This document shows positions 37,968-47,940 of a DNA stretch of 64,000 nucleotides, piece after piece. Where the stretch lies: positions 1-64,000 of the forward strand of contig NZ_BANR01000015.1 in the NCBI RefSeq assembly GCF_000332975.1. The letters are read 5' to 3'. Numbering within the stretch: the first letter of the stretch is position 1; the number at the start of each line of letters is the position of its first letter. The DNA comes from Gordonia aichiensis NBRC 108223. Its GTDB lineage: Bacteria > Actinomycetota > Actinomycetes > Mycobacteriales > Mycobacteriaceae. Position numbers and translations under genes: made by a program. The notes under the pieces are model-generated. The model was not told the DNA's origin, made no database searches, and saw only the letters and a list, made by a program, of their open reading frames with translations.

Positions 37968-38633
37968 ATGACCACCGAACCGTCAAGCCCCACGTCGTCC
38001 GACGCTGGGGCAGACCCCGCGAGCGGCCCCAAGCGCAGGCCGAGCCGCGCGGATGTGCGGGCCGACATTCGAGCTGCGGCGCGCGAGGTGTTTCTCGAAC
38101 GCGGGTACGCCAACGCGTCGCTCGAGATGATCGCCGGCCGGGCCGGCTTCTCCAAGGGCGCGGTGTACTCGAACTTTGCGAGCAAGGGTGCGTTGTTCAT
38201 GGACCTGACCTCGTCGGTGTTCACCGAGCGTGCGTCTGGGTTCACGGCCCCTGGCCTCGTTCCGTCAGCGGACAACGCCGACGCAGAGTCGGATATGCGC
38301 GCTCTCGCACTCATGCTGCTCAAGCAGATTCGCGACTCCTATCGCACGAATGTGGTCTTCGCCGAGTTCCGGTCGGAGGTCGACCGCGACCCGCAGCTGC
38401 TGAAGGACTACACCGCGGCGCGCGCACAACTCGCCGAGTCACTCGCGGCGAACATCGAAGAGGTCACTGCCGTCAGAGGTTTACGGCTGAAGGTGCCCGC
38501 GCTCGACGCCGCCGTGGTGGTGCTTGCGTTGATCAACGGACTCTCGCTCGAGTACGTCGGCCGCGACGGAGAGCACGTACTCTCCGTCGACACCATGGCG
38601 CGGGTGTTGGGGGCGTTGGTGGGTGGCGCGTAG
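37968..38633 (+). CDS. TetR-family transcriptional regulator
   Basis: 221 residues from the ATG at 37968; an in-frame ATG at 37911 adds a hydrophobic leader unlike the family. The HTH covers residues 25-70: RADVRADIRAAAREVFLERG, then MIAGRAGFSKGAVYSNFASK. The C-terminal domain is helical with a TetR_C-like segment (NVVFAEFRSEVDRDPQLL). It may regulate the permease just upstream. It is the last clearly core-like gene before the accessory island. Confidence 0.87.
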   Translation: MTTEPSSPTSSDAGADPASGPKRRPSRADVRADIRAAAREVFLERGYANASLEMIAGRAGFSKGAVYSNFASKGALFMDLTSSVFTERASGFTAPGLVPSADNADAESDMRALALMLLKQIRDSYRTNVVFAEFRSEVDRDPQLLKDYTAARAQLAESLAANIEEVTAVRGLRLKVPALDAAVVVLALINGLSLEYVGRDGEHVLSVDTMARVLGALVGGA

Positions 38634-38655
38634 CAGCTCCCTGATATCACGACAA

Positions 38656-39096
38656 CTAGTGCGCCGGTGCAGGTTTCATGGTGGAGTCGCCGTCACCGAC
38701 CGAACCCGGCGGTCGGGGCGCGGCTGTCGGGCGATACTCGATCATTTCTCGGGATAGCGCGCGCCGGAAGATCCGCGTCCGTGCCAGGTTCACGGTGGCC
38801 CTGGTAAGCAGAAGATAGGTGAACGCTGCGCTGACGAGAACGAGTGACAACGCCAACCAGTCACCGCCACTGAGGTTTTCAGCGGCGACGCTCCGTGCCC
38901 ACAGTCGCCAGTAGACCATCAGGCTGACATCGAGCCCCACTCCGTAGGAGATGCCGAACGACATCAGGTACGGCTTCCAGGTTCCGTCGCGGAGCCGCTC
39001 GGACAACAGTTCCTGCCGCAGCGCCGCTGCGACCGACAGCAGGTTACCGACACCTAGCCAGAGCAGAGTGGTGGCAACAAATTGGTCGAGGAGCAA
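38656..39096 (-). CDS. Membrane protein, probably 5'-truncated at the island edge
   Basis: The visible frame gives 146 residues from a TTG, with three or four hydrophobic segments (TTLLWLGVGNLLSVAAAL, GISYGVGLDVSLMVYWRL, ALSLVLVSAAFTYLLLTRAT). The frame stays open for about 20 more codons upstream (to about 39160) with protein-like sequence (ARKWGFPHPIISL) but no ATG, so the original start may have been lost where the island begins. The C-terminal 40 residues are soluble. No family is recognised. Confidence 0.5.
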   Translation of the reverse strand: MLLDQFVATTLLWLGVGNLLSVAAALRQELLSERLRDGTWKPYLMSFGISYGVGLDVSLMVYWRLWARSVAAENLSGGDWLALSLVLVSAAFTYLLLTRATVNLARTRIFRRALSREMIEYRPTAAPRPPGSVGDGDSTMKPAPAH

Positions 39097-39340
39097 GGAA
39101 ATGATCGGGTGGGGGAATCCCCACTTGCGGGCACCCCAACGCCACCCTTGCGAGTGTCACCGTCAACATGGAGCGGATGCGCGACATGCCAGCACTAGGA
39201 TCAGCCACGAGGGCTGCCTCCTAGTCTCGGGAGCCGAAGGGGGCGGGTGCTGTAGGCGCAACGCTTGCCTCCGCCCGCGCGGGCGCCTCTGCACAGTACG
39301 CCAGCAACTCGTCTTATTACCGCAGCAGAATGCCCACCGT

Positions 39341-40495
39341 GTCGCACTCAAATACATTGTGGTCGATGAGTTTCAAGACTTCTCCCTCATGTTCTATGAA
39401 CTCCTCCGTGCAGCGATGGGTCATGCTTCGGATGCCCAACTCATGACAGTGGGCGACGATTGGCAGGCGATCAACGAGTTCGCCCGCTCCACAACCGATT
39501 ACTTTCGCGACTTCGAGCAACTGTTTGCGCCTGCGCAAACCTTACGGCTGGAGACGAACCGTCGGTCAGCTAGGTCTATTGTTGACCTGGGCAATTCTGT
39601 TATGCGCGGGTTTGGATTCCCAGCCAGAAGTTACTCGCCACTGACGTGAAATATTCGCCTTCTCGAAATGTCGTCCTTTGAATCTTCTCCGTTGGAGAAG
39701 GCAATCTTTGGAGAAGGCTACAGGTGGAATGTGGCGCTACTCCGTCTGATCTCCGAGCACCACCGAGCTGGCCGATCCGTGGCCGTTTTCTCGCGGCGCA
39801 GGAGGGGATTCCACGTCGTCGAAGCTAATGGGATCACCAAGACATTCGACGAGTTCGGCAAGTATGGCGAGTACCTTTCCAAGGTACTCAAACTTCCCCC
39901 CGGAACGGTGCGTTTCAGCTCAACCCATGGTTTCAAAGGTCAAGAATCCGAAGCTGTCATCCTCCTCAGCGCCGATGAGCGGAACTACCCATCAATCCAC
40001 CCCCACTGGTTTTTGTCTACCATGTTCGGCGACACTATTCCAACGATTACCGAGGCTGGGCGTCGACTGTTCTATGTCGGAGTAAGCCGACCGAAAGTGC
40101 ACCTCGATATCGTGATCTTCGGCGAGAATCCATCGCCTTTCTGGACCGACGCAATGCCTGCCGGCATCAAAGCCACCCCTTGGGGCAACATCCCACAAGT
40201 AGCTCTCGGCGCGGCGATTGCGAGCATCGTCGAACTTCGTGTCTACAACGCCCAGGTTGAGCACTTCGATGTCGTTCGGAGTCAACTTAAGGCCTCAGGC
40301 TTCCGGTACCACGGCGATGAGAAACGGTGGTGGCGGCACTTCGATGTCGAGCACTTCGACACACAGATCGTTCTTTCGTCTCCGTGGGCCAACGAACCCG
40401 GAATCCGCATCGAGGCGTGGCACGGCGACGCAACCATCTGGCAGCACCGAGGACCAGAACGTCGAACTCCGACAAATTTTAACTCAGCATGGTAG
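39341..40495 (+). pseudogene. UvrD/Rep-like superfamily 1 helicase, 5'-truncated with in-frame stop
   Basis: Helicase similarity starts abruptly at VALKYIVVDEFQDFS (motif II), followed by MTVGDDWQAINEFARS (motif III) and LETNRRSARSIVDLGN (motif IV). A TGA at 39647-39649 interrupts the frame. The same frame resumes at once and holds FSSTHGFKGQESEAVILL (motif V), RRLFYVGVSRPK (motif VI) and a C-terminal part of about 120 residues. Motif I (Walker A) and everything before it is gone, so the ATPase cannot work. The stop comes 9 bp before the next gene, with which it was presumably an operon. The composition is less GC-rich than the neighbouring core genes. Confidence 0.85.
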
Positions 40496-40504
40496 AGACA
40501 AACC

Positions 40505-43500
40505 ATGTCCGGAATCCAGCATCTGTCAATGCGTGTACCGTGGCGAGACCGACCATGGGATCAGTTCATCTGCGACGATCCGCTGGACAATTCATCTTGT
40601 GTGCTTCTCGCGGGAATCGGCGCAAACCGGGATGACGCGCTCGAGCATGCGCACGCTGGCGACGGGTTCGCAGAACTCGATTCGAGTCGGCTTCCGTGCC
40701 TGAGCGAGCGTGCCACGTTCATGTCGCCCGATGGATACACCGTCGTCAAGCAACACCCCTATCGCAACAGCGGTCCGCTGAAGGGCACCTTGCTCGACAC
40801 GCCGGTATCGGTGCCCGGTTATTCCTTCGAAGCCGTTCCATTTCGGTGGCTGAGCCGGCAATCTCTCGCTCAGGAGATCGGGCACGATCGTGTACCGAGC
40901 TTCAACCCGGAGGCCGAAGAGGTCGTCGACCAAGCGTTGGGCTGGCCGCCGGCATGGGTGATGGACGGCGATAACCAGCGTGCGGTCGTTGATGCCTTCT
41001 TCGAGCCCGTCGCCACCGGAGACTCGCTGGTGTTCACCTATCTCAAGCATTCTCCGCTCCAAGATCAACGCACCGGTCGCCTCCTCGTGGGCGCGGCCCG
41101 GATTACGGCCGTAAGCCCACCACGCATGTGGCGTAGCGACGGCAGTCCGCCGTTCACATCGTCCATGTGGGAGACGATTGTCGAGCATTCGCTTCGACCG
41201 GAGATGTCCGACGGGATTCTGCTCCCCTACCAAGACCTGATTCCGTTGGTCGACGACGGCGTCAACATCGAGTCCGCGCTCGCGTGGGCACCGGAAGAGC
41301 GTCTCACCGAATTCTCCTACGTCACCGAGCACCTGTCCGACGATGCCGCCATCGAGGCTCTGTCGTCTCTCCGTGCCGCGACACAAGGGATGCGTGGACT
41401 CGGAATCGAGCTCCCCGAAGCGGGTCTGCATTGGCTCGATGATCAAATCGGGCGCCTTTGGCAGATGCGCGGTCCCACGCCGGGCCTCCCTGGCGTCCTA
41501 TCGATCCTCGGAGTGCAGCAGCCCCATGTCGCCGCGCGCGCCGTCCTCGATGAAGCGGGAAACCGAGTCGACACCTGGGCTGTTCTTGAGGAAATCCTGC
41601 TTGAACCCGAATCAGCCAGTGCGACCGTCCGCCAGCACATCAAATCGACGCATGCACGAGTCTGGCAGAAACTGCCGCGCGAGCACCAAGAGGCGCTGCA
41701 GTTGCTCGCAGCGTTCGACATCTCGATCGATCAAGCAGAGATGCTGCTCAGAGGCCACACCGATACCGAACTGTCGGTCGCAGAACTGCTCGACAATCCC
41801 TACTTCGCAGCCATCTGCACCTACGGCCAACCGGACCGCGTTCCATTCGCGACCATCGACCGCGCGCTGTTCCCACCCACGCACGTCACTTGGACGCCGT
41901 CGCTCCCCGACCGTGTCTCGATCGACGATCACCTCGACCGGCGACGCATCGAAGCCCTTCTCACCGACGTTCTCGAACGTGCCGGCACCGGCGGAGACAC
42001 CTTGCTCGCCGTCGGAGAGGCACTCGAACTAGCTAACGCGGCAGAACTATCGCAGCCTCCCAAACTGACCACGACCATTCTCCCAGGACTCGACCTAGAT
42101 CCCGACGGCATCACCAACTTGGAAGACCAAGACATCTGGTCACCGCTGACCACAGCGAGACTGAGCGACGACACCCCTGCCTTCAAACTCGTGCGGTTCG
42201 AAGCTACTGCCGACATCATCCGCGAGCAGATCAGCGAGCAGCGCGGACGCGCCTCGCTGGGACAGATCCCAGATGCGCGCGCTGTGCTCGATCGCGCTCT
42301 GGACCTCAACTCGGCAGTCGCCGACGCGATCGATGGGCTCGAAGACCGGGCACGAACTGAGAAAGCGGCGGGACTATCGGTGCTGCACGACTCGCCGCTG
42401 TCGGTCCTCATCGGCCCTGCCGGAACAGGCAAGACGACCCTCCTGCGCGCTCTGGTCGAGTACCTCGACTTGCCACCTGGCGATGTCCTATTGCTTGCGC
42501 CCACCGGGAAAGCCAAAGTCCAGCTCGAGTCTAAAGTCGGTTTGCCCGCGAAAACTCTTGCCTCGCATTTGCTCCCAACTGGCAGGTACGACCCCGACAC
42601 AGGCCGCTACATCGTGCAGACTGAGCAACAGCCACGCCACAACTACGGCCTGGTGGTTATCGATGAATCGTCCATGCTGACCGAGGATATGCTCGCCGCC
42701 ACCCTCGACTCACTCGGGAACGTCAACCGAATCATATTGGTGGGCGACCCACGTCAGCTCCCACCGATCGGTGCTGGACGACCCTTCGTTGACCTTGTCA
42801 CGAGTGTCCGGCCGGAAGCATTCGCGTCGTGGGTACACGTCGCACCGGGATACGTCGAACTCCAGGTCCCGCGACGGCAACTTCCCGACGGAAGCCATGG
42901 CGATCGCCACGACCTCGAACTCGCCGCATGGTTCGGCGGCAACACCCAAGGCGCCGGCGACGAGTCGATCTGGGCCGAACTCGCCGAGCAGCCAGATCTG
43001 CCCACTGTGCGCTACGTCCAATGGGGCGACCGCAGCCCGATTAAGGCCCTCACCGACGAACTTGAGCACAACCTGGACCTCACCGGTGATCCGGATCCCG
43101 AACGCGCGTTTGCCCTTACCTATGGTGCCGTCATCAACGGCCAATATCTGAACTGGGACCCCGGAGCGGGCGAGCGCTGCGAAGACTGGCAAATACTGTC
43201 GCCCACCCGTTCTCGCGCATTCGGCTCAGTCGAACTTAACCGTCACATCAAGCGAATGTACCGGGCTAAAGACGTGGAGTTCGCTCACGGATACTTCAAG
43301 AGCAACATCGCTAAACCCATCGGACCAGAACTCATCGTCCGCGGCGACAAGGTCATGCAAACGATCAACCGAAACCTCAAAGCCTGGCCAAAAGAAGGAG
43401 CGTTGAACTACGTCGCCAACGGCGAGATCGGGGTCGGCATCGGTCGCATCGTTCCGAACCACAAGGTCCGAAAGAACAAGCTTTCCCTCAAAGTCGAATT

Positions 43501-44314
43501 CTCGTCACAGCCTGGCTATAGCTACACCTACTGGCCGACCAACAGCGACGATCCGATGCTCGAACTCGCTTGGGCTGTAACTGTTCACAAGTCCCAGGGC
43601 TCCGAGTTTGGAACCACGTTCCTCATGCTTCCAGCACGAGCCAACATCTCACGAGAGTTACTCTACACGGCTCTCACGCGCCAGAAGGAGCGCGTGGTCA
43701 TTATCCACGACGGAAACTTAAACGACCTTCGGCAACTCACACATCCAGCTCGCTCCGAGACAGCACGACGGCTTACCGATCTATTCTCTGCACCAGACCC
43801 GGTGCAACTCGAAATCCGAGGCGAGAAACAACGGTTCGATCGCAAGCTCATCCATGTTTCAGCAAACGGTGTGCCTATGGCGTCCAAGAACGAGGTCATC
43901 ATCGCTGGCCTCCTCGACAGACTCGTACCAGGACGCTGGCTGTACGAGGAACCCCTCACCGGCGGCGATGGCCGCGTCGTGCACCCTGACTTCACCATCT
44001 CCCTCGGGGACGGCCAGATCGTCTACTGGGAACATGCCGGTATGCTCGACATGCCCGACTACGCTCGGAAGTGGGAACTGAAGAAGTCCTGGTACGCCGA
44101 TAACGGCATCCTGTCCCATGACCAGGGCGGAGGGCCGAATGGCACGCTCATCTGGACCGATGATCTCAAAGGAGCTGATGCCGCAGCGTGGCTCGATTTT
44201 GCTGCCGCCGCCTTTGGCATTCAACCCGCCTCAGAGCCCGCAACAGGGGGGAGTAGGACGGGAAGTCGCCGCGCTGCGAAGAAGGCCACTCGGAAACGTT
44301 TGCCTCGCGAGTGA
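40505..44314 (+). CDS. Large RecD-like superfamily 1B helicase with C-terminal nuclease-like domain
   Basis: 1269 residues, intact. Residues 1-600 hold an uncharacterised region starting SMRVPWRDRPWDQFICDDP, with helical stretches. The helicase core follows: Walker A LIGPAGTGKTTLLRAL near 636, Walker B LVVIDESSMLTEDML near 716, GDPRQLPPIGAGRPF near 745, and the UvrD_C_2 motifs VTVHKSQGSEFGTTFLML near 1027 and LLYTALTRQKERVVII near 1052. Residues 1120-1235 look like a PD-(D/E)xK-type nuclease: NEVIIAGLLD, RVVHPDFTI, IVYWEHAGMLDMPDY and a later KKSWY. The start has an AUG 9 bp after the helicase remnant. Fused helicase-nucleases paired with a UvrD-like helicase are typical of defence or repair cassettes; the exact system is not recognised. 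Confidence 0.8.
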   Translation: MSGIQHLSMRVPWRDRPWDQFICDDPLDNSSCVLLAGIGANRDDALEHAHAGDGFAELDSSRLPCLSERATFMSPDGYTVVKQHPYRNSGPLKGTLLDTPVSVPGYSFEAVPFRWLSRQSLAQEIGHDRVPSFNPEAEEVVDQALGWPPAWVMDGDNQRAVVDAFFEPVATGDSLVFTYLKHSPLQDQRTGRLLVGAARITAVSPPRMWRSDGSPPFTSSMWETIVEHSLRPEMSDGILLPYQDLIPLVDDGVNIESALAWAPEERLTEFSYVTEHLSDDAAIEALSSLRAATQGMRGLGIELPEAGLHWLDDQIGRLWQMRGPTPGLPGVLSILGVQQPHVAARAVLDEAGNRVDTWAVLEEILLEPESASATVRQHIKSTHARVWQKLPREHQEALQLLAAFDISIDQAEMLLRGHTDTELSVAELLDNPYFAAICTYGQPDRVPFATIDRALFPPTHVTWTPSLPDRVSIDDHLDRRRIEALLTDVLERAGTGGDTLLAVGEALELANAAELSQPPKLTTTILPGLDLDPDGITNLEDQDIWSPLTTARLSDDTPAFKLVRFEATADIIREQISEQRGRASLGQIPDARAVLDRALDLNSAVADAIDGLEDRARTEKAAGLSVLHDSPLSVLIGPAGTGKTTLLRALVEYLDLPPGDVLLLAPTGKAKVQLESKVGLPAKTLASHLLPTGRYDPDTGRYIVQTEQQPRHNYGLVVIDESSMLTEDMLAATLDSLGNVNRIILVGDPRQLPPIGAGRPFVDLVTSVRPEAFASWVHVAPGYVELQVPRRQLPDGSHGDRHDLELAAWFGGNTQGAGDESIWAELAEQPDLPTVRYVQWGDRSPIKALTDELEHNLDLTGDPDPERAFALTYGAVINGQYLNWDPGAGERCEDWQILSPTRSRAFGSVELNRHIKRMYRAKDVEFAHGYFKSNIAKPIGPELIVRGDKVMQTINRNLKAWPKEGALNYVANGEIGVGIGRIVPNHKVRKNKLSLKVEFSSQPGYSYTYWPTNSDDPMLELAWAVTVHKSQGSEFGTTFLMLPARANISRELLYTALTRQKERVVIIHDGNLNDLRQLTHPARSETARRLTDLFSAPDPVQLEIRGEKQRFDRKLIHVSANGVPMASKNEVIIAGLLDRLVPGRWLYEEPLTGGDGRVVHPDFTISLGDGQIVYWEHAGMLDMPDYARKWELKKSWYADNGILSHDQGGGPNGTLIWTDDLKGADAAAWLDFAAAAFGIQPASEPATGGSRTGSRRAAKKATRKRLPRE

Positions 44315-44436
44315 ACCGCAACTCATTCCGTCTGAGCGCGCCGAGTAGACCCAGGTCGAGGCTCGGCGATTGAGGAGCCCTGCTGCGTCGTCCGGTCGTT
44401 GTGGGACTGTGTTGCTCGAGGATTCGAGCAGGAAGA

Positions 44437-45560
44437 ATCGACAACGCTATGGCGTGGAACAAGCGCGTCGGCACACGTCGGAGCAGATCATTTGTAATTT
44501 CGCCAAACACAAAAAGCTCCGGGCTGTTGTCAGGAACGCGACGAGGTGTGCTGGCACCTCGAAGTCGCGGAATCCACGCGGCGTCGTTGGCTGTCCCGAT
44601 ATGGAGGCATGAATACAGACGATGCGAAACGCCTCCAGGAACTCGAAGACGAAAACGCCCACCTGAAGAAGCTTGTCACCAACCAGGCCCTCGACATCGA
44701 CCCGCTCAAAGACTTGTCGGCAGGAAACCTTCTAACCCCGAACCGCAATCGCCGCGCCGTGACGGTGCTGCGCGAGCGGTTCGGGTTTCTTAGCGTCCGG
44801 CGTGTTCAGTGGTCGGCCTGCACCGCTCGACCATGCGGCTGACGACGAGGACACCCGACTACGGGCCTGGCTTCGCACGTTTTCCACCGATCGACCCCGA
44901 TGGGGGTGGAGGCGGGCGGCGAATATGACTCGCAAATCCGGCTGGTCGGTCAACGACAAACGTATCCGACGGTTGTGGCGTGAGGAATGATTGCGGGTTC
45001 CCCAGCGCCGCAGGAAGAAGCGGTTGACCGACATCGGGGTCACTGTAGGAGCGATGGTGCCGATCCGACCGAACCTGATCTGGGCGACGGATTTCGAATT
45101 CGACACGCTCGCCGCCGGACGAACAATCAAGCTGCTCAGCATTATTGACGAATACGCGCGTGAATGTCTGGCCATCGAGATAGATCATTCCATCGACGCC
45201 GATCAGGTGGTCGCACTCTTGGACCGCCTCGCTCTCACGCTGGGAACACCAGTCTACGTGCGGTTGGACAACGGCCCCGAGTTCGTCGCTTATGCCGTCC
45301 GTGACTGGTGCCGATTTACCGGCACCAGAGCCTTGTTCATCGATCTCGGCTCGCCTCGGCAGAACGGCTGGATCGAATCATACAACGCACGTCTGCGCGA
45401 TGAACTACTCAACTCGTGGCGTTTCGACTCCCCTACTCGAGGCCAGCTTGATCACGAGGATTGGAGAACCGGATTACAACACCACCCGGCCCCACAGCGC
45501 CCACGGCGACCTCAGCCCGCGGAGTTCGCTCTACAGTGGAGCTCTCTACCCACCACCCCC
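44437..45560 (+). mobile_element. Degenerate IS3-family (IS407-like) insertion sequence
   Basis: The orfA remnant reads ARRHTSEQIICNFAKH, then in another frame HLEVAESTRRRWLSRYGGMN and ENAHLKKLVTNQALDIDPLK. The orfB remnant reads CSVVGLHRSTMRL, then RAWLRTFSTDRPRWGWRRA. It is broken by a TGA at 44988-44990 where the family has Gly (WREEGL). Its integrase core follows: IWATDFEFD (first Asp), VRLDNGPEFVAY (second Asp) and SPRQNGWIESYNARLRDELL (Glu). There are at least three frameshifts plus the stop, so it is inactive. Clear terminal inverted repeats were not found, and the ends are approximate. Confidence 0.85.
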
Positions 45561-45607
45561 AAGCCGCATAGCGACTGGACCACCAATCGGGCCCCTCATT
45601 TGGTCCC

Positions 45608-46752
45608 CTACTGCGGTCCAGCGAAGCCACCGCAATGCCGCATTTCTCCTTCACTGACGACAAAGATGTCGACCCATCCCGCTTCGCGAACCCCAACCCA
45701 GCCACCAAATGCTTGCCTGGATACCGATCGATAGGCGCGAAACCGCGCATCCTCGAGGTTGTCGAACACGAACTCGGCGGGTGTAGTCCCGGCGGGCGGA
45801 AGTGGTACGGGGTCAGACGGGCTCTGCGCGAGCGACGCCACAGTGGGGCCGGCGAAGCCAGACTGATGCAGAATCGAACCGCTAGACTCTTGGCGCGCAA
45901 CGACTTTGATCCAACCCGCTGGCAGACTTCCGCTGCGCTTGGAGTCTGATTGTGCTGTAGCAAGGCGAGCTAGTTCGAAGCTAACATCCGGGAGCGACTC
46001 AAACCGGAACTCCACTCGCGAGACTCCGTCCTTGGAGTCATCGACTACCAGGGGCGGGAGGTCAACTACATCAGACATCTCGAATGAATCAATGGTGCCC
46101 TCCCGTCGATTCCCTTCAGACCTAGGAATGGTCACTCCGTGCCGGTGCAACGTCAGCAGCAGCTCCTCGCCGATCGTCACCACAGAGGCGTAAATGGGCG
46201 TTGGCATCGGCTCGGACGAATTCCGTCCACCGAAGCCACGCACCCACCCGGCGCTATTGTCATGGACAAGAGCGTGGGTTGCCGCGTTGAACCTGTCGAT
46301 GTGGGCCCCGCCGTCCTTATTGGCCAAAGCCAGGACCAGGCTCTTGCGCGAGAACTCGGCACCGTTCGAATCGAGAAGAACGGAGCGAGTCCACCATTCC
46401 TCAAAGGCCACGTATCGCGAACGCTCCGACTGCTCAATTTGATCGATTGTTCGAGGGAAGAACGCAATACCGTCACCGCCGAGGCCCATGCTGGTGAGAC
46501 CGGACTTCGTCCAACAATCATTGGGTCCCTATCGATGATGGGCGCACTGTCAGCCCACTGAAGGCCCGCTTTCAAGCCCAGCTGATCCAGAAGGCTGTGA
46601 CTCACGCCTGTGTCGTGGACCAACACTCTCACCGCTACCGCGATTCGCTTCGATTCCGACGTCCGACCCCGATCAAATGCTGCTGCGGAGTCCGAGATGA
46701 ATTGCAGCTGCTCAGCAAGATCGCTGTGAAGATCGCGGGCGCGAGGGTGCAC
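45608..46752 (-). pseudogene. Frameshifted gene of unknown function
   Basis: Two leftward frames fit end to end. The first (GTG 46752 to about 46490) gives DLHSDLAEQLQFISDSAAAF, IAVAVRVLVHDTGVSHSLLD and LQWADSAPIIDRDPMIVG. The second (about 46489 to 45608) gives YVAFEEWWTRSVLLDSNGAE, SRKSLVLALANKDGGAHIDR and a beta-rich C-terminal half. The pattern leading to ANKDGGAHID is one I have seen in uncharacterised bacterial proteins about 250 residues long. One frameshift between about 46480 and 46510 separates them. A sequencing error cannot be excluded. Function is unknown. Confidence 0.6.
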
Positions 46753-47014
46753 AGTTGCCCTAGTGTAACGATCTCACGCCGACGACGGTCTTGGCGTCGC
46801 GCCAGCCGGATCGAGGTTTGCGTGATCTGGCACTGCGCACCGATCGACGCCAGCCGACGCTTCACCTCTCGATGATGACGAGACGCTACAGCGGCGGACG
46901 ACCCTCACTCTTCCACGCGTGGCATCGGCGCTTCATGACTGCGCGCAGGGTAGTTCTTAAGGCCGTGCAGCCGTCGCGTTAGCCGATGTCAGGCCGGGGT
47001 GCCAAGCTTCTGAC

Positions 47015-47701
47015 GTGATAGAAGAGATCGCACCAGCAGCGCAGGAATTCCGGCCCCTTGTTCCCGAACACCGGCAGGCCGAACACGTTGCTGCCAGCAT
47101 CATGCAGCAGCTCCGCGTCAAAGGCGCTCACGCGACTCCAGGATCGCGCGACGGCGGCATCGACGTCGAGGCAAGGCGGGCGGTTGCCCGAGTCAAATCG
47201 ACCAGTGCTCAGGCCTGCCGCGCGGATCTCCAAAGGCTTTGCGGGGCAGACCGCGGAGCGAAAGGGCGCAACCGGCGGTTGGTCTTCTTCGCAAAGACTG
47301 GCTACTCACCCGAAGCAATCAGATACGCCGACGAGGCCAAGATCTTCCTGTTTACGTTCACCCTCAAGGGCAAGGTCGAAGCGAGGAACGAACGTGCCCG
47401 ACGGCTCCTCAAGGGTGACACCAGGAAATTCAGGGTGCGCGACTTCAGCAAACACACGGAAGGCCGCACCCAAACAGTCAAGAAAACGCCTGTTCCTGCG
47501 GTAGATATGGCGATATTTGCAGCCGTTGTGCTGGTATTGGCTGCGATGCTGGTCGGTGGTGCGTATCTGCTCGTTCAAGGCGTAGGCGGCCTGAGCGATC
47601 CGACCTTGTCAGCATTGCTCACGTCGGCCTGCGGCCTAGTTCTTGTCCTCGTCGCGGGGTTTCCGGGTTGGGCGATCTGGCGACTCGGCACAGAGAGTTG
47701 A
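47015..47701 (+). CDS. Mrr-like restriction endonuclease domain protein with two membrane helices
   Basis: 228 residues from a GTG. Residues 20-110 resemble the Mrr catalytic domain: HVAASIMQQLRVKGAHATPG, then SRDGGIDVEARRAVARVKST, where Asp, Glu and Lys form a PD-(D/E)xK-like site. LQRLCGADRGAKGRNRRLVF and FFAKTGYSPEAIRYADEAKI follow. Residues about 165-185 and 195-220 are two hydrophobic helices (AIFAAVVLVLAAMLVGGAYL, LLTSACGLVLVLVAGFPGW), so the nuclease domain is membrane-anchored. It is the last island gene before tRNA-Leu. A role in restriction or defence is likely from the domain; the target is unknown. Confidence 0.75.
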   Translation: MIEEIAPAAQEFRPLVPEHRQAEHVAASIMQQLRVKGAHATPGSRDGGIDVEARRAVARVKSTSAQACRADLQRLCGADRGAKGRNRRLVFFAKTGYSPEAIRYADEAKIFLFTFTLKGKVEARNERARRLLKGDTRKFRVRDFSKHTEGRTQTVKKTPVPAVDMAIFAAVVLVLAAMLVGGAYLLVQGVGGLSDPTLSALLTSACGLVLVLVAGFPGWAIWRLGTES

Positions 47702-47796
47702 CGAAGCCGACGCTGTAGATCAATTGGGAACTTCAAGTAGCAGATCCCTGATCCGTAGCTGTCCACTATCGCCAGCCAACTCAGCGACAAAACAAG

Positions 47797-47854: not shown

Positions 47855-47940
47855 TGGTGGGCGAAGGGGGACTTGAACCCCCACGTCCCGAAGGACACTG
47901 GCACCTGAAGCCAGCGCGTCTGCCATTCCGCCACTCGCCC
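47855..47940 (-). tRNA. tRNA-Leu (anticodon CAG)
   Basis: The minus strand folds as an 86-nt class II tRNA. GGGCGAG (5') pairs with TTCGCCC, apart from one G-U, then comes discriminator A and encoded CCA. The D-arm is GCGGAATGGCAGACGC. The anticodon arm CTGGC-TTCAGGT-GCCAG gives anticodon CAG. A long variable arm (TGTCCTTCGGGACG) and the T-arm GGGGGTTCAAGTCCCCC follow. A tRNA-Leu next to fhaA is conserved in mycobacteria. The accessory island ends just beyond its 3' end, a common integration site. Confidence 0.96.

What the first reader, a model, noticed from the sequence alone, without database searches (positions are those of the whole stretch)
39341..44314. Remains of a two-gene helicase-nuclease cassette, possibly a defence system
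A UvrD-like helicase and a giant RecD-like helicase with a nuclease-like tail stand 9 bp apart in an accessory island that also holds an Mrr-like nuclease. The first is broken; the second is full length. Neither matches a named defence system that I can identify, and the 600-residue N-terminal region of the large protein is uncharacterised.
Basis: partly seen in the sequence, partly recalled or inferred. Interest (0 to 1): 0.7.

Follow-up and report, generated by a model that had tools for sequence, protein, structure and literature searches.

The report
Lone reader-helicase-nuclease antiphage candidate
The large gene is an intact copy of a widespread but untested single-gene phage-defence candidate that joins a DNA motor to a DNA-cutting domain and perhaps to a base-sensing domain, and the broken helicase gene beside it looks like an unrelated remnant rather than its partner.

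Summary
In detail: a broken UvrD-like gene and an intact 1,269-residue RecD-like helicase with a nuclease tail lie 9 bp apart in a low-GC variable island. The two-gene cassette is not supported. The remnant covers only residues 621-995 of a 997-residue relative. Its family is beside none of 91 loci of relatives of the large gene and in none of 32 of their genomes. The large protein matches PADLOC's single-gene phage defence candidate PDC-S68 end to end (1,438 bits); no paper in the library names it. Relatives occur in many bacterial phyla, alone or inside varied restriction operons; 29 of 49 fully flanked loci carry R-M/DISARM-type genes against 1 of 32 control stretches. The same site in two congeners carries type I and type III R-M genes. 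Models suggest a YTH/EVE-like barrel (Z 5.1-7.8, no sequence support), a RecD2-like helicase and a Bax1/Vsr/TnsA-type PD-(D/E)XK nuclease. Most likely it is a single-chain defence enzyme whose base-sensing domain licenses an ATP-driven helicase-nuclease. Membership is secure, defence probable, base-sensing a hypothesis.

The parts
40505..44314 (+). Intact PDC-S68-family gene, 1,269 aa: N-terminal reader-like barrel, RecD2-like SF1 helicase, C-terminal PD-(D/E)XK nuclease
   Evidence: PADLOC PDLC05065 1,438 bits over residues 3-1236; all 159 columns that are at least 95% conserved in 84 relatives are unchanged here
40505..41404 (+). Residues 1-300: barrel resembling YTH/EVE (PUA-like) modified-base reader domains (hypothesis)
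   Evidence: AlphaFold2 pLDDT 93 for residues 1-612; VIA rows 2-24 are YTH, EVE-type and VcaM4I entries, Z 5.1-7.8; no sequence-profile support
41672..42262 (+). Residues 390-586: RecD2-like N-terminal part with a winged-helix-like segment (about 471-564)
   Evidence: RecD2 3gp8 Z 10.9, 157 aligned, rmsd 3.4; HHH_RecD2 weakly in 21 of 78 members
42356..43774 (+). Residues 618-1090: SF1 helicase core; Walker A GPAGTGKT at 42413-42436
   Evidence: Pfam; PDB 3e1s and 1w36_D; K643, D720, E721, Q751 and R1059 in 85 of 85 sequences
43802..44239 (+). Residues 1100-1245: PD-(D/E)XK nuclease with E1130, D1162, E1176 and K1193
   Evidence: pLDDT 92; Bax1 Z 9.2, Vsr 7.9, TnsA 7.4; DrdV Foldseek E 5e-4; E1130, D1162, E1176 and K1193 in 83, 84, 83 and 79 of 85
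39344..40495 (+). Remnant of a UvrD-like helicase gene (pieces 39344-39649 and 39668-40495), 5'-truncated, in-frame stop at 39647-39649; not a conserved partner
   Evidence: not adjacent in relatives
38622..47783 (.). Variable low-GC island between the end of congener homology at the TetR gene and the flank of tRNA-Leu
   Evidence: Congener homology stops at 38621 and resumes at 47784-47789; GC profile
44546..45734 (+). Transposase pieces (HTH_Tnp_1 and rve integrase core), probably IS3-like
   Evidence: Pfam; the IS3 label is my inference
47015..47701 (+). Mrr_cat-domain protein with a hydrophobic C-terminal part (by eye)
   Evidence: Pfam PF04471, E 4.5e-7
47855..47940 (-). tRNA-Leu (CAG) at the right edge of the hotspot
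   Evidence: ARAGORN

Best explanation
The feature is a single-gene anti-phage candidate of the PDC-S68 family, intact and probably able to function, carried in a defence hotspot. The UvrD remnant is unrelated debris. Proposed mechanism: the N-terminal PUA-like (YTH/EVE-like) domain inspects DNA bases; the RecD2-like ATPase moves along and opens DNA; the C-terminal nuclease cuts it, so that DNA with the wrong base state is destroyed, as in modification-dependent (type IV) restriction but with an SF1 motor. Shown here: family membership, conserved motor and nuclease residues, absence of a conserved partner, and R-M/DISARM neighbourhoods. Inferred: anti-phage function, the base-reading role of the N-terminal barrel, and the order of action.
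For: End-to-end PDC-S68 match. 159 columns at least 95% conserved in 84 relatives, all kept in the window. Motor and nuclease residues near-invariant. Neighbourhoods: 29 of 49 against 1 of 32 control, and 17 of 47 against 0 of 32 with single queries (p 4e-5). PADLOC tallies of 378 and 400 families in 81 and 55 neighbour genes against 23 in 97 control genes. Operon partner types are unclustered on the family tree, 26 changes against a shuffled mean of 25.5, as expected of a portable, self-sufficient gene. Fold: YTH/EVE rows, RecD2, Bax1/Vsr/TnsA/DrdV. The same site holds type I R-M genes in G019 and type III R-M genes in G053.
Against: No paper in the library names the family, so no experiment is known to me. 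Embedding inside R-M operons, where self DNA is methylated, sits awkwardly with a reader that attacks methylated DNA. In the window itself the only other defence-like gene found is the Mrr_cat gene.
Confidence: 0.55

Rival explanations
1. Companion to restriction: the protein is a general ATP-driven end-processing helicase-nuclease that degrades DNA already cut by the cell's restriction systems, with the N-terminal barrel acting only as a DNA-binding clamp.
For: Found in the same operon with type I, type III, IIG/ISP and DISARM-like genes, for example between HsdM and HsdS in L102 and L118. SF1 helicase plus nuclease resembles RecBCD/AddAB logic (recalled).
Against: 59 of 85 tree rows have no labelled partner in their operon (the window row was set to solo by hand, and short contigs count as solo). 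The N-terminal domain is nearly as well conserved as the motor in places (blocks of 0.59-0.60 against 0.61-0.68).
Confidence: 0.25
2. Two-gene cassette: the UvrD-like helicase and the RecD-like helicase-nuclease work together and the first gene has decayed.
For: 9 bp spacing and same strand. UvrD-type helicases of other families lie near 16 of 90 relatives, directly upstream in L033 and L055.
Against: The remnant's own family is beside 0 of 91 loci (two weak hits kilobases away in L095 and L100; 81 of 90 distinct loci hold at least 1 kb upstream) and in 0 of 32 genomes, while the same query does find its relative in G029, a genome where the PDC-S68 query finds no full-length match.
Confidence: 0.05
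3. A repair or mobile-element helicase-nuclease without a defence role.
For: RecD2-like core; copies on 8 plasmid records and a few viral contigs.
Against: Patchy: 4 of 401 genomes of the taxonomic family at E 1e-40, the window's own included. Neighbourhoods enriched in R-M and DISARM genes. Of the 80 viral-contig loci kept, 5 match to residue 1210 or beyond.
Confidence: 0.1

Closest known systems
PADLOC PDC-S68 (phage defence candidate, single gene)
   Same: End-to-end HMM match, 1,438 bits, residues 3-1236; single gene; relatives embedded in other defence systems
   Different: No tested feature separates it; it is a member. I found no experiment on the family
RecD2 / RecD SF1B helicases (3e1s, 3gp8, 1w36_D)
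   Same: Helicase core and N-terminal RecD2-like part
   Different: Extra 300-residue reader-like barrel and a C-terminal nuclease; patchy distribution
Type IV modification-dependent restriction with PUA-like readers (VcaM4I EVE-HNH, PMC7897488; YTH-McrB, cited in PMC7641849)
   Same: Possible PUA-like sensor joined to a nuclease; VcaM4I itself is in the VIA list (Z 5.4)
   Different: RecD2-like ATPase motor instead of McrB GTPase or a bare HNH; PD-(D/E)XK tail; modification dependence untested
Bax1 / Vsr / TnsA PD-(D/E)XK nucleases
   Same: Fold of residues 1100-1245; weak TPD (26), DUF790 (4) and TnsA-like (1) Pfam hits among 78 members
   Different: Fused to a helicase; the motif reads E, PDF, EH, K
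Gabija GajB (UvrD-like)
   Same: GajB models fill most of the PADLOC rows shown for the remnant's two pieces
   Different: The intact relative is 997 aa with an inserted segment like the PDC-S68 nuclease; no separate GajA gene found

Membership tests
PDC-S68 | Full-length match to the PADLOC model | tested here: met
   PDLC05065, 1,438 bits, protein 3-1236, model 4-1218 of 1221
PDC-S68 | Acts as a single gene (no obligatory partner) | tested here: met
   By gene order only: no labelled operon partner in 59 of 85 rows, among them the six rows nearest the window; function untested
PDC-S68 | Embedded in or beside other defence systems | tested here: met
   For the family: 43 of 90 loci with a labelled R-M/DISARM gene, 29 of 49 against 1 of 32. 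In the window only an Mrr_cat gene is near
PDC-S68 | Anti-phage activity | not testable with these tools
   Needs experiment; no paper in the library names PDC-S68
RecD2-type SF1B helicase | Helicase motifs and RecD2 N-terminal fold | tested here: met
RecD2-type SF1B helicase | SH3 (2B) domain | tested here: inconclusive
   PF18335 at E 0.017, below its cut-off, residues 946-980
PUA-like (EVE/YTH) reader type IV restriction | Reader domain | tested here: inconclusive
   VIA Z 5.1-7.8 to YTH, EVE-type and VcaM4I entries; no sequence support
PUA-like (EVE/YTH) reader type IV restriction | Nuclease domain | tested here: met
   PD-(D/E)XK fold and conserved residues
PUA-like (EVE/YTH) reader type IV restriction | Cleavage depends on DNA modification | not testable with these tools
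   Needs biochemistry
Gabija | GajA beside GajB (composition recalled) | tested here: not met
   No GajA row shown for any of the 10 window proteins scanned; the other island genes gave no rows or a DrmC model only; the lists of the remnant's first piece and of the large protein were cut at 25 rows
Mokosh | MkoA helicase with a PLD-type nuclease (recalled) | tested here: not met
   MkoA at best E 2.5e-7 with its best stretch 30 residues round the P-loop; tail is PD-(D/E)XK, not PLD
DISARM | DrmA and DrmB genes in the island | tested here: not met
   None shown among the 10 window proteins scanned; one DrmC-model hit at 44546-44839 falls on a transposase HTH

The most novel reading that the evidence does not exclude
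The PDC-S68 family is an undescribed architecture of modification-sensing restriction enzyme: a YTH/EVE-like base reader, a RecD2 helicase and a Bax1/Vsr-like nuclease in one chain. It moves freely between operons of different R-M types and DISARM because it reads the base state of DNA, and so can police DNA that lacks or bears the mark set by whichever methylase it lives beside.
Probability: 0.3. Interest if true: 0.8.

Novelty: new member of a known kind. Interest (0 to 1): 0.5.

Why it matters
A widespread defence candidate that I could find only as a numbered HMM gets a testable domain reading: reader, motor, cutter. If the N-terminal domain reads bases, this would be a new motor type in modification-dependent restriction, would explain why the gene is repeatedly found in operons that methylate DNA, and would give a defined enzyme for ATP-driven, modification-dependent DNA cutting.

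Tried and rejected
Two-gene cassette: not supported. The tool warned that the empty answer shows nothing without a positive control, the same query, supplies one (own genome and G029).

Attachment sites: no convincing direct repeat links the island ends, so the way it was inserted is open.

EVE membership by sequence: hhalign of residues 1-300 and sub-windows against sets drawn from 17 EVE domains gave probabilities of at most about 2%. With two of the four sets (A and B) the best local hit of the sub-windows ended at about residue 204 after starting at about 168 or 148, but the pooled set and set C chose other places, so I do not count this as support. Pfam at E 10 gave HHH_RecD2 in 21 of 78 and no EVE. 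PDB sequence profiles of the N- and C-terminal regions found nothing credible. Foldseek gave no match at E 0.001 for the N-terminal model in PDB or viral models (best a RecD2-HHH protein at E 3.9e-3; an EVE-annotated viral protein at rank 10, E 0.38). In the VIA list of the nuclease, rank 2 is a mitoribosome chain (Z 8.6), so only Bax1 stands above unrelated rows, and by less than 1. The YTH rows are repeats of few proteins (Mmi1, YTHDF1-3).

Weak points of the enrichment: the HMMs were trained on neighbours from the same loci. Of the 12 single queries, 9 came from homologue loci; without the three loci that supplied queries and are in the test set it is 14 of 44 against 0 of 32 (p 2e-4). With only the three type I queries from outside it is 5 of 47 against 0 of 32 (p 0.08), not significant alone. 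The 32 control stretches come from 27 genomes; 8 of 40 requested stretches did not exist. The PADLOC control used 97 genes from 25 of the 32 stretches (residue cap), the four ORFs nearest the middle of each, whereas the tested neighbours were same-strand genes within two of the relative. DrmD-type labels are broad: the same proteins also match BrxHI, HmaA and DpdE models. Rows dropped: L045 as a duplicate of L004; loci shorter than 23.5 kb or 23.3 kb; six proteins (L037, L051, L060, L068, L069, L103) outside 1,190-1,300 aa or otherwise unfit from the tree (84 of 90 loci kept, plus the window). 'Solo' rests on 13 label families and a 150-bp gap rule; short contigs count as solo; the window was set to solo by hand, its remnant neighbour not counted.

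Papers: PMC7641849, PMC7897488, PMC11090510, PMC11514479, PMC12753311, PMC12988326, PMC9252829 and PMC12255303 were seen as found passages only; PMC13092281 was searched for four terms without a match; others appear only in search listings. The preprint cited for the PDC families (doi 10.1101/2024.01.29.577857) is not held; I know it through PMC12988326 and PMC12255303. DISARM, Gabija and Mokosh gene roles and RecBCD/AddAB logic are recalled.

Full report
OBSERVATION. ORF 40505-44314 encodes 1,269 residues without a stop. Nine bases upstream ends a broken UvrD-like gene, in one frame across 38951-40495 with TGA at 39647-39649; only from 39344 does it align with an intact relative. Both lie in a stretch of lower GC (0.57-0.63) than most of the rest. 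Congener DNA stops matching at 38621 and resumes at 47784-47789, just short of tRNA-Leu. One congener, G028, has a 5,995-base contig that matches in length and in its gene a Gordonia paraffinivorans contig, so the window is probably from Gordonia (inference).

THE SITE. In congener G019 the same site, between the TetR gene and tRNA-Leu, holds about 16.8 kb with PADLOC-confirmed type I methylase, specificity and restriction subunits. In G053 the contig that ends with the tRNA-Leu flank carries a type III methylase and restriction enzyme and a second single-gene candidate, PDC-S46; its left flank is on another contig. In G027 the DNA beside tRNA-Leu does not match the island and was not annotated. 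The site is therefore a defence hotspot. To its right lies a FhaA-FHA-PP2C-RodA-PBP-kinase-kinase cluster.

THE REMNANT. The only relative of its second piece in 401 genomes of the taxonomic family, besides itself, is in G029: an intact 997-residue ORF, UvrD-like by Pfam over the part scanned and, at residues 357-473, carrying a segment that matches the nuclease end of the PDC-S68 model (E 2.4e-16). It stands next to a type I restriction subunit. The window keeps only its residues 621-995, so the N-terminal part that should hold Walker A is gone. Among 91 loci with relatives of the large gene (90 distinct), none has this family beside it; two weak hits (L095, L100) lie kilobases away. Of the 90, 81 hold at least 1 kb upstream and 75 at least 3 kb. 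Among 32 whole genomes of such loci none has it at E 1e-5. The pair is not a conserved cassette.

THE LARGE PROTEIN IS PDC-S68. PADLOC's model PDLC05065 matches residues 3-1236 with 1,438 bits. Within the taxonomic family 4 of 401 genomes, the own included, have it at E 1e-40. In the genus all 59 genomes give a hit at E 1e-3, but only the window's genome and G028 give a full-length one; the listed matches of the others lie between residues 482 and 1112. A scan of GTDB contigs found 431 relatives among 487 candidate stretches and kept the best 80, from Actinomycetota, Pseudomonadota, Bacteroidota, Bacillota, Cyanobacteriota, Planctomycetota, Acidobacteriota and others. Eight plasmid records match at E 1e-30 and two phage-labelled records at E 1e-20. 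The window copy keeps every one of 159 columns that are at least 95% conserved in 84 relatives, so it looks functional.

NEIGHBOURHOODS. Same-strand neighbours within two genes of the relatives (81 and 55 proteins) match 378 and 400 PADLOC families at E 1e-10, led by DrmD/DrmA-type helicases (7 of 81), mad2 (5 of 55) and type I methylases (4 of 55); 97 control genes from the same genomes match 23 families, none in more than two genes. With labelled HMMs 29 of 49 fully flanked loci carry an R-M or DISARM-type gene against 1 of 32 control stretches (Fisher p 7.6e-8; these HMMs were trained on neighbours of the same loci). With single queries it is 17 of 47 against 0 of 32 (p 4e-5). The gene sits between HsdM and HsdS (L102, L118), behind type III Mod-Res (L057, L058), next to type III Mod (L098), behind a type ISP enzyme (L040), and in DISARM-like runs with DrmA, DrmB, a kinase and a UvrD helicase (L072, L074, L075). 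In 59 of 85 tree rows no labelled partner shares the operon (the window was set so by hand), and partner types are not clustered on the tree (26 changes, shuffled mean 25.5). It is a portable unit. This is the pattern described in print as 'guilt-by-embedding' for the PDC candidates (PMC12988326, passages). No paper in the library names PDC-S68, and none holds 'RecD', 'EVE domain' and 'restriction' together.

ANATOMY. Residues 1-612 and 1100-1245 were folded from 78 sequences each, with mean pLDDT 93 and 92. The tail is a PD-(D/E)XK nuclease, nearest Bax1 (Z 9.2, 96 aligned, rmsd 2.8), with Vsr at 7.9 and TnsA at 7.4, and a mitoribosome chain at 8.6; Foldseek's one match at E 0.001 is the restriction enzyme DrdV (E 5e-4). 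E1130, D1162, E1176 and K1193 are kept in 83, 84, 83 and 79 of 85. The core is RecD2-like. Residues 390-586 match RecD2 (Z 10.9, 157 aligned, rmsd 3.4). Over residues 1-300, rows 2-24 of the structural list are YTH domains (Mmi1, YTHDF1-3), proteins I recall as EVE-type (PH1033, MJECL36, Atu2648) and the EVE-HNH restriction enzyme VcaM4I, Z 5.1-7.8. PMC7897488 and PMC7641849 (passages) state that YTH and EVE are close PUA-like relatives and that such domains serve as sensors in modification-dependent restriction.

MECHANISM. Most likely: the N-terminal domain inspects a base, the ATPase moves along and opens DNA, and the nuclease cuts. Steps shown: the domains and their conserved motor and nuclease residues. 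Steps inferred: base reading, order of action, anti-phage effect. The chief rival is an end-processing companion of restriction enzymes. A difficulty for simple type IV logic is life beside methylases: such a reader would have to spare the partner's mark or sense its absence.

VERDICT. An ordinary identity (a member of a known, apparently untested candidate family) with an unusual and testable architecture; the two-gene reading is not supported.

Noticed in passing
L136:2628-9021 (G029): Intact 997-aa relative of the remnant: a UvrD helicase with an internal segment (357-473) matching the nuclease end of the PDC-S68 model, convergent with a type I restriction subunit gene.
   Followed up: partly
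L132:6325-14683 (G019) and L134:3919-11698 (G053): The same chromosomal site carries type I R-M genes in G019 and type III R-M genes plus PDC-S46 in G053, so it is a defence hotspot.
   Followed up: partly
window 44546-44839: A PADLOC DrmC model (PDLC02590) scores 1.3e-9 on what Pfam calls a transposase HTH; that model may be contaminated.
   Followed up: no
window 45608-46489: 293-aa minus-strand ORF in the island with no Pfam or PADLOC match at E 0.1; it may not be a gene.
   Followed up: no
window 47015-47701: Mrr_cat domain followed by a hydrophobic segment; by eye its motif lacks the usual Q/E two residues before the catalytic K (motif recalled, not tested).
   Followed up: no
L102:1816-9201 and L118:7866-15116: PDC-S68 gene lies exactly between HsdM and HsdS of type I R-M operons.
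   Followed up: partly
L072, L074, L075: Recurrent Micromonosporaceae cluster: DrmA, DrmB, PD-T4-6-like kinase, PDC-S68, UvrD.
   Followed up: partly
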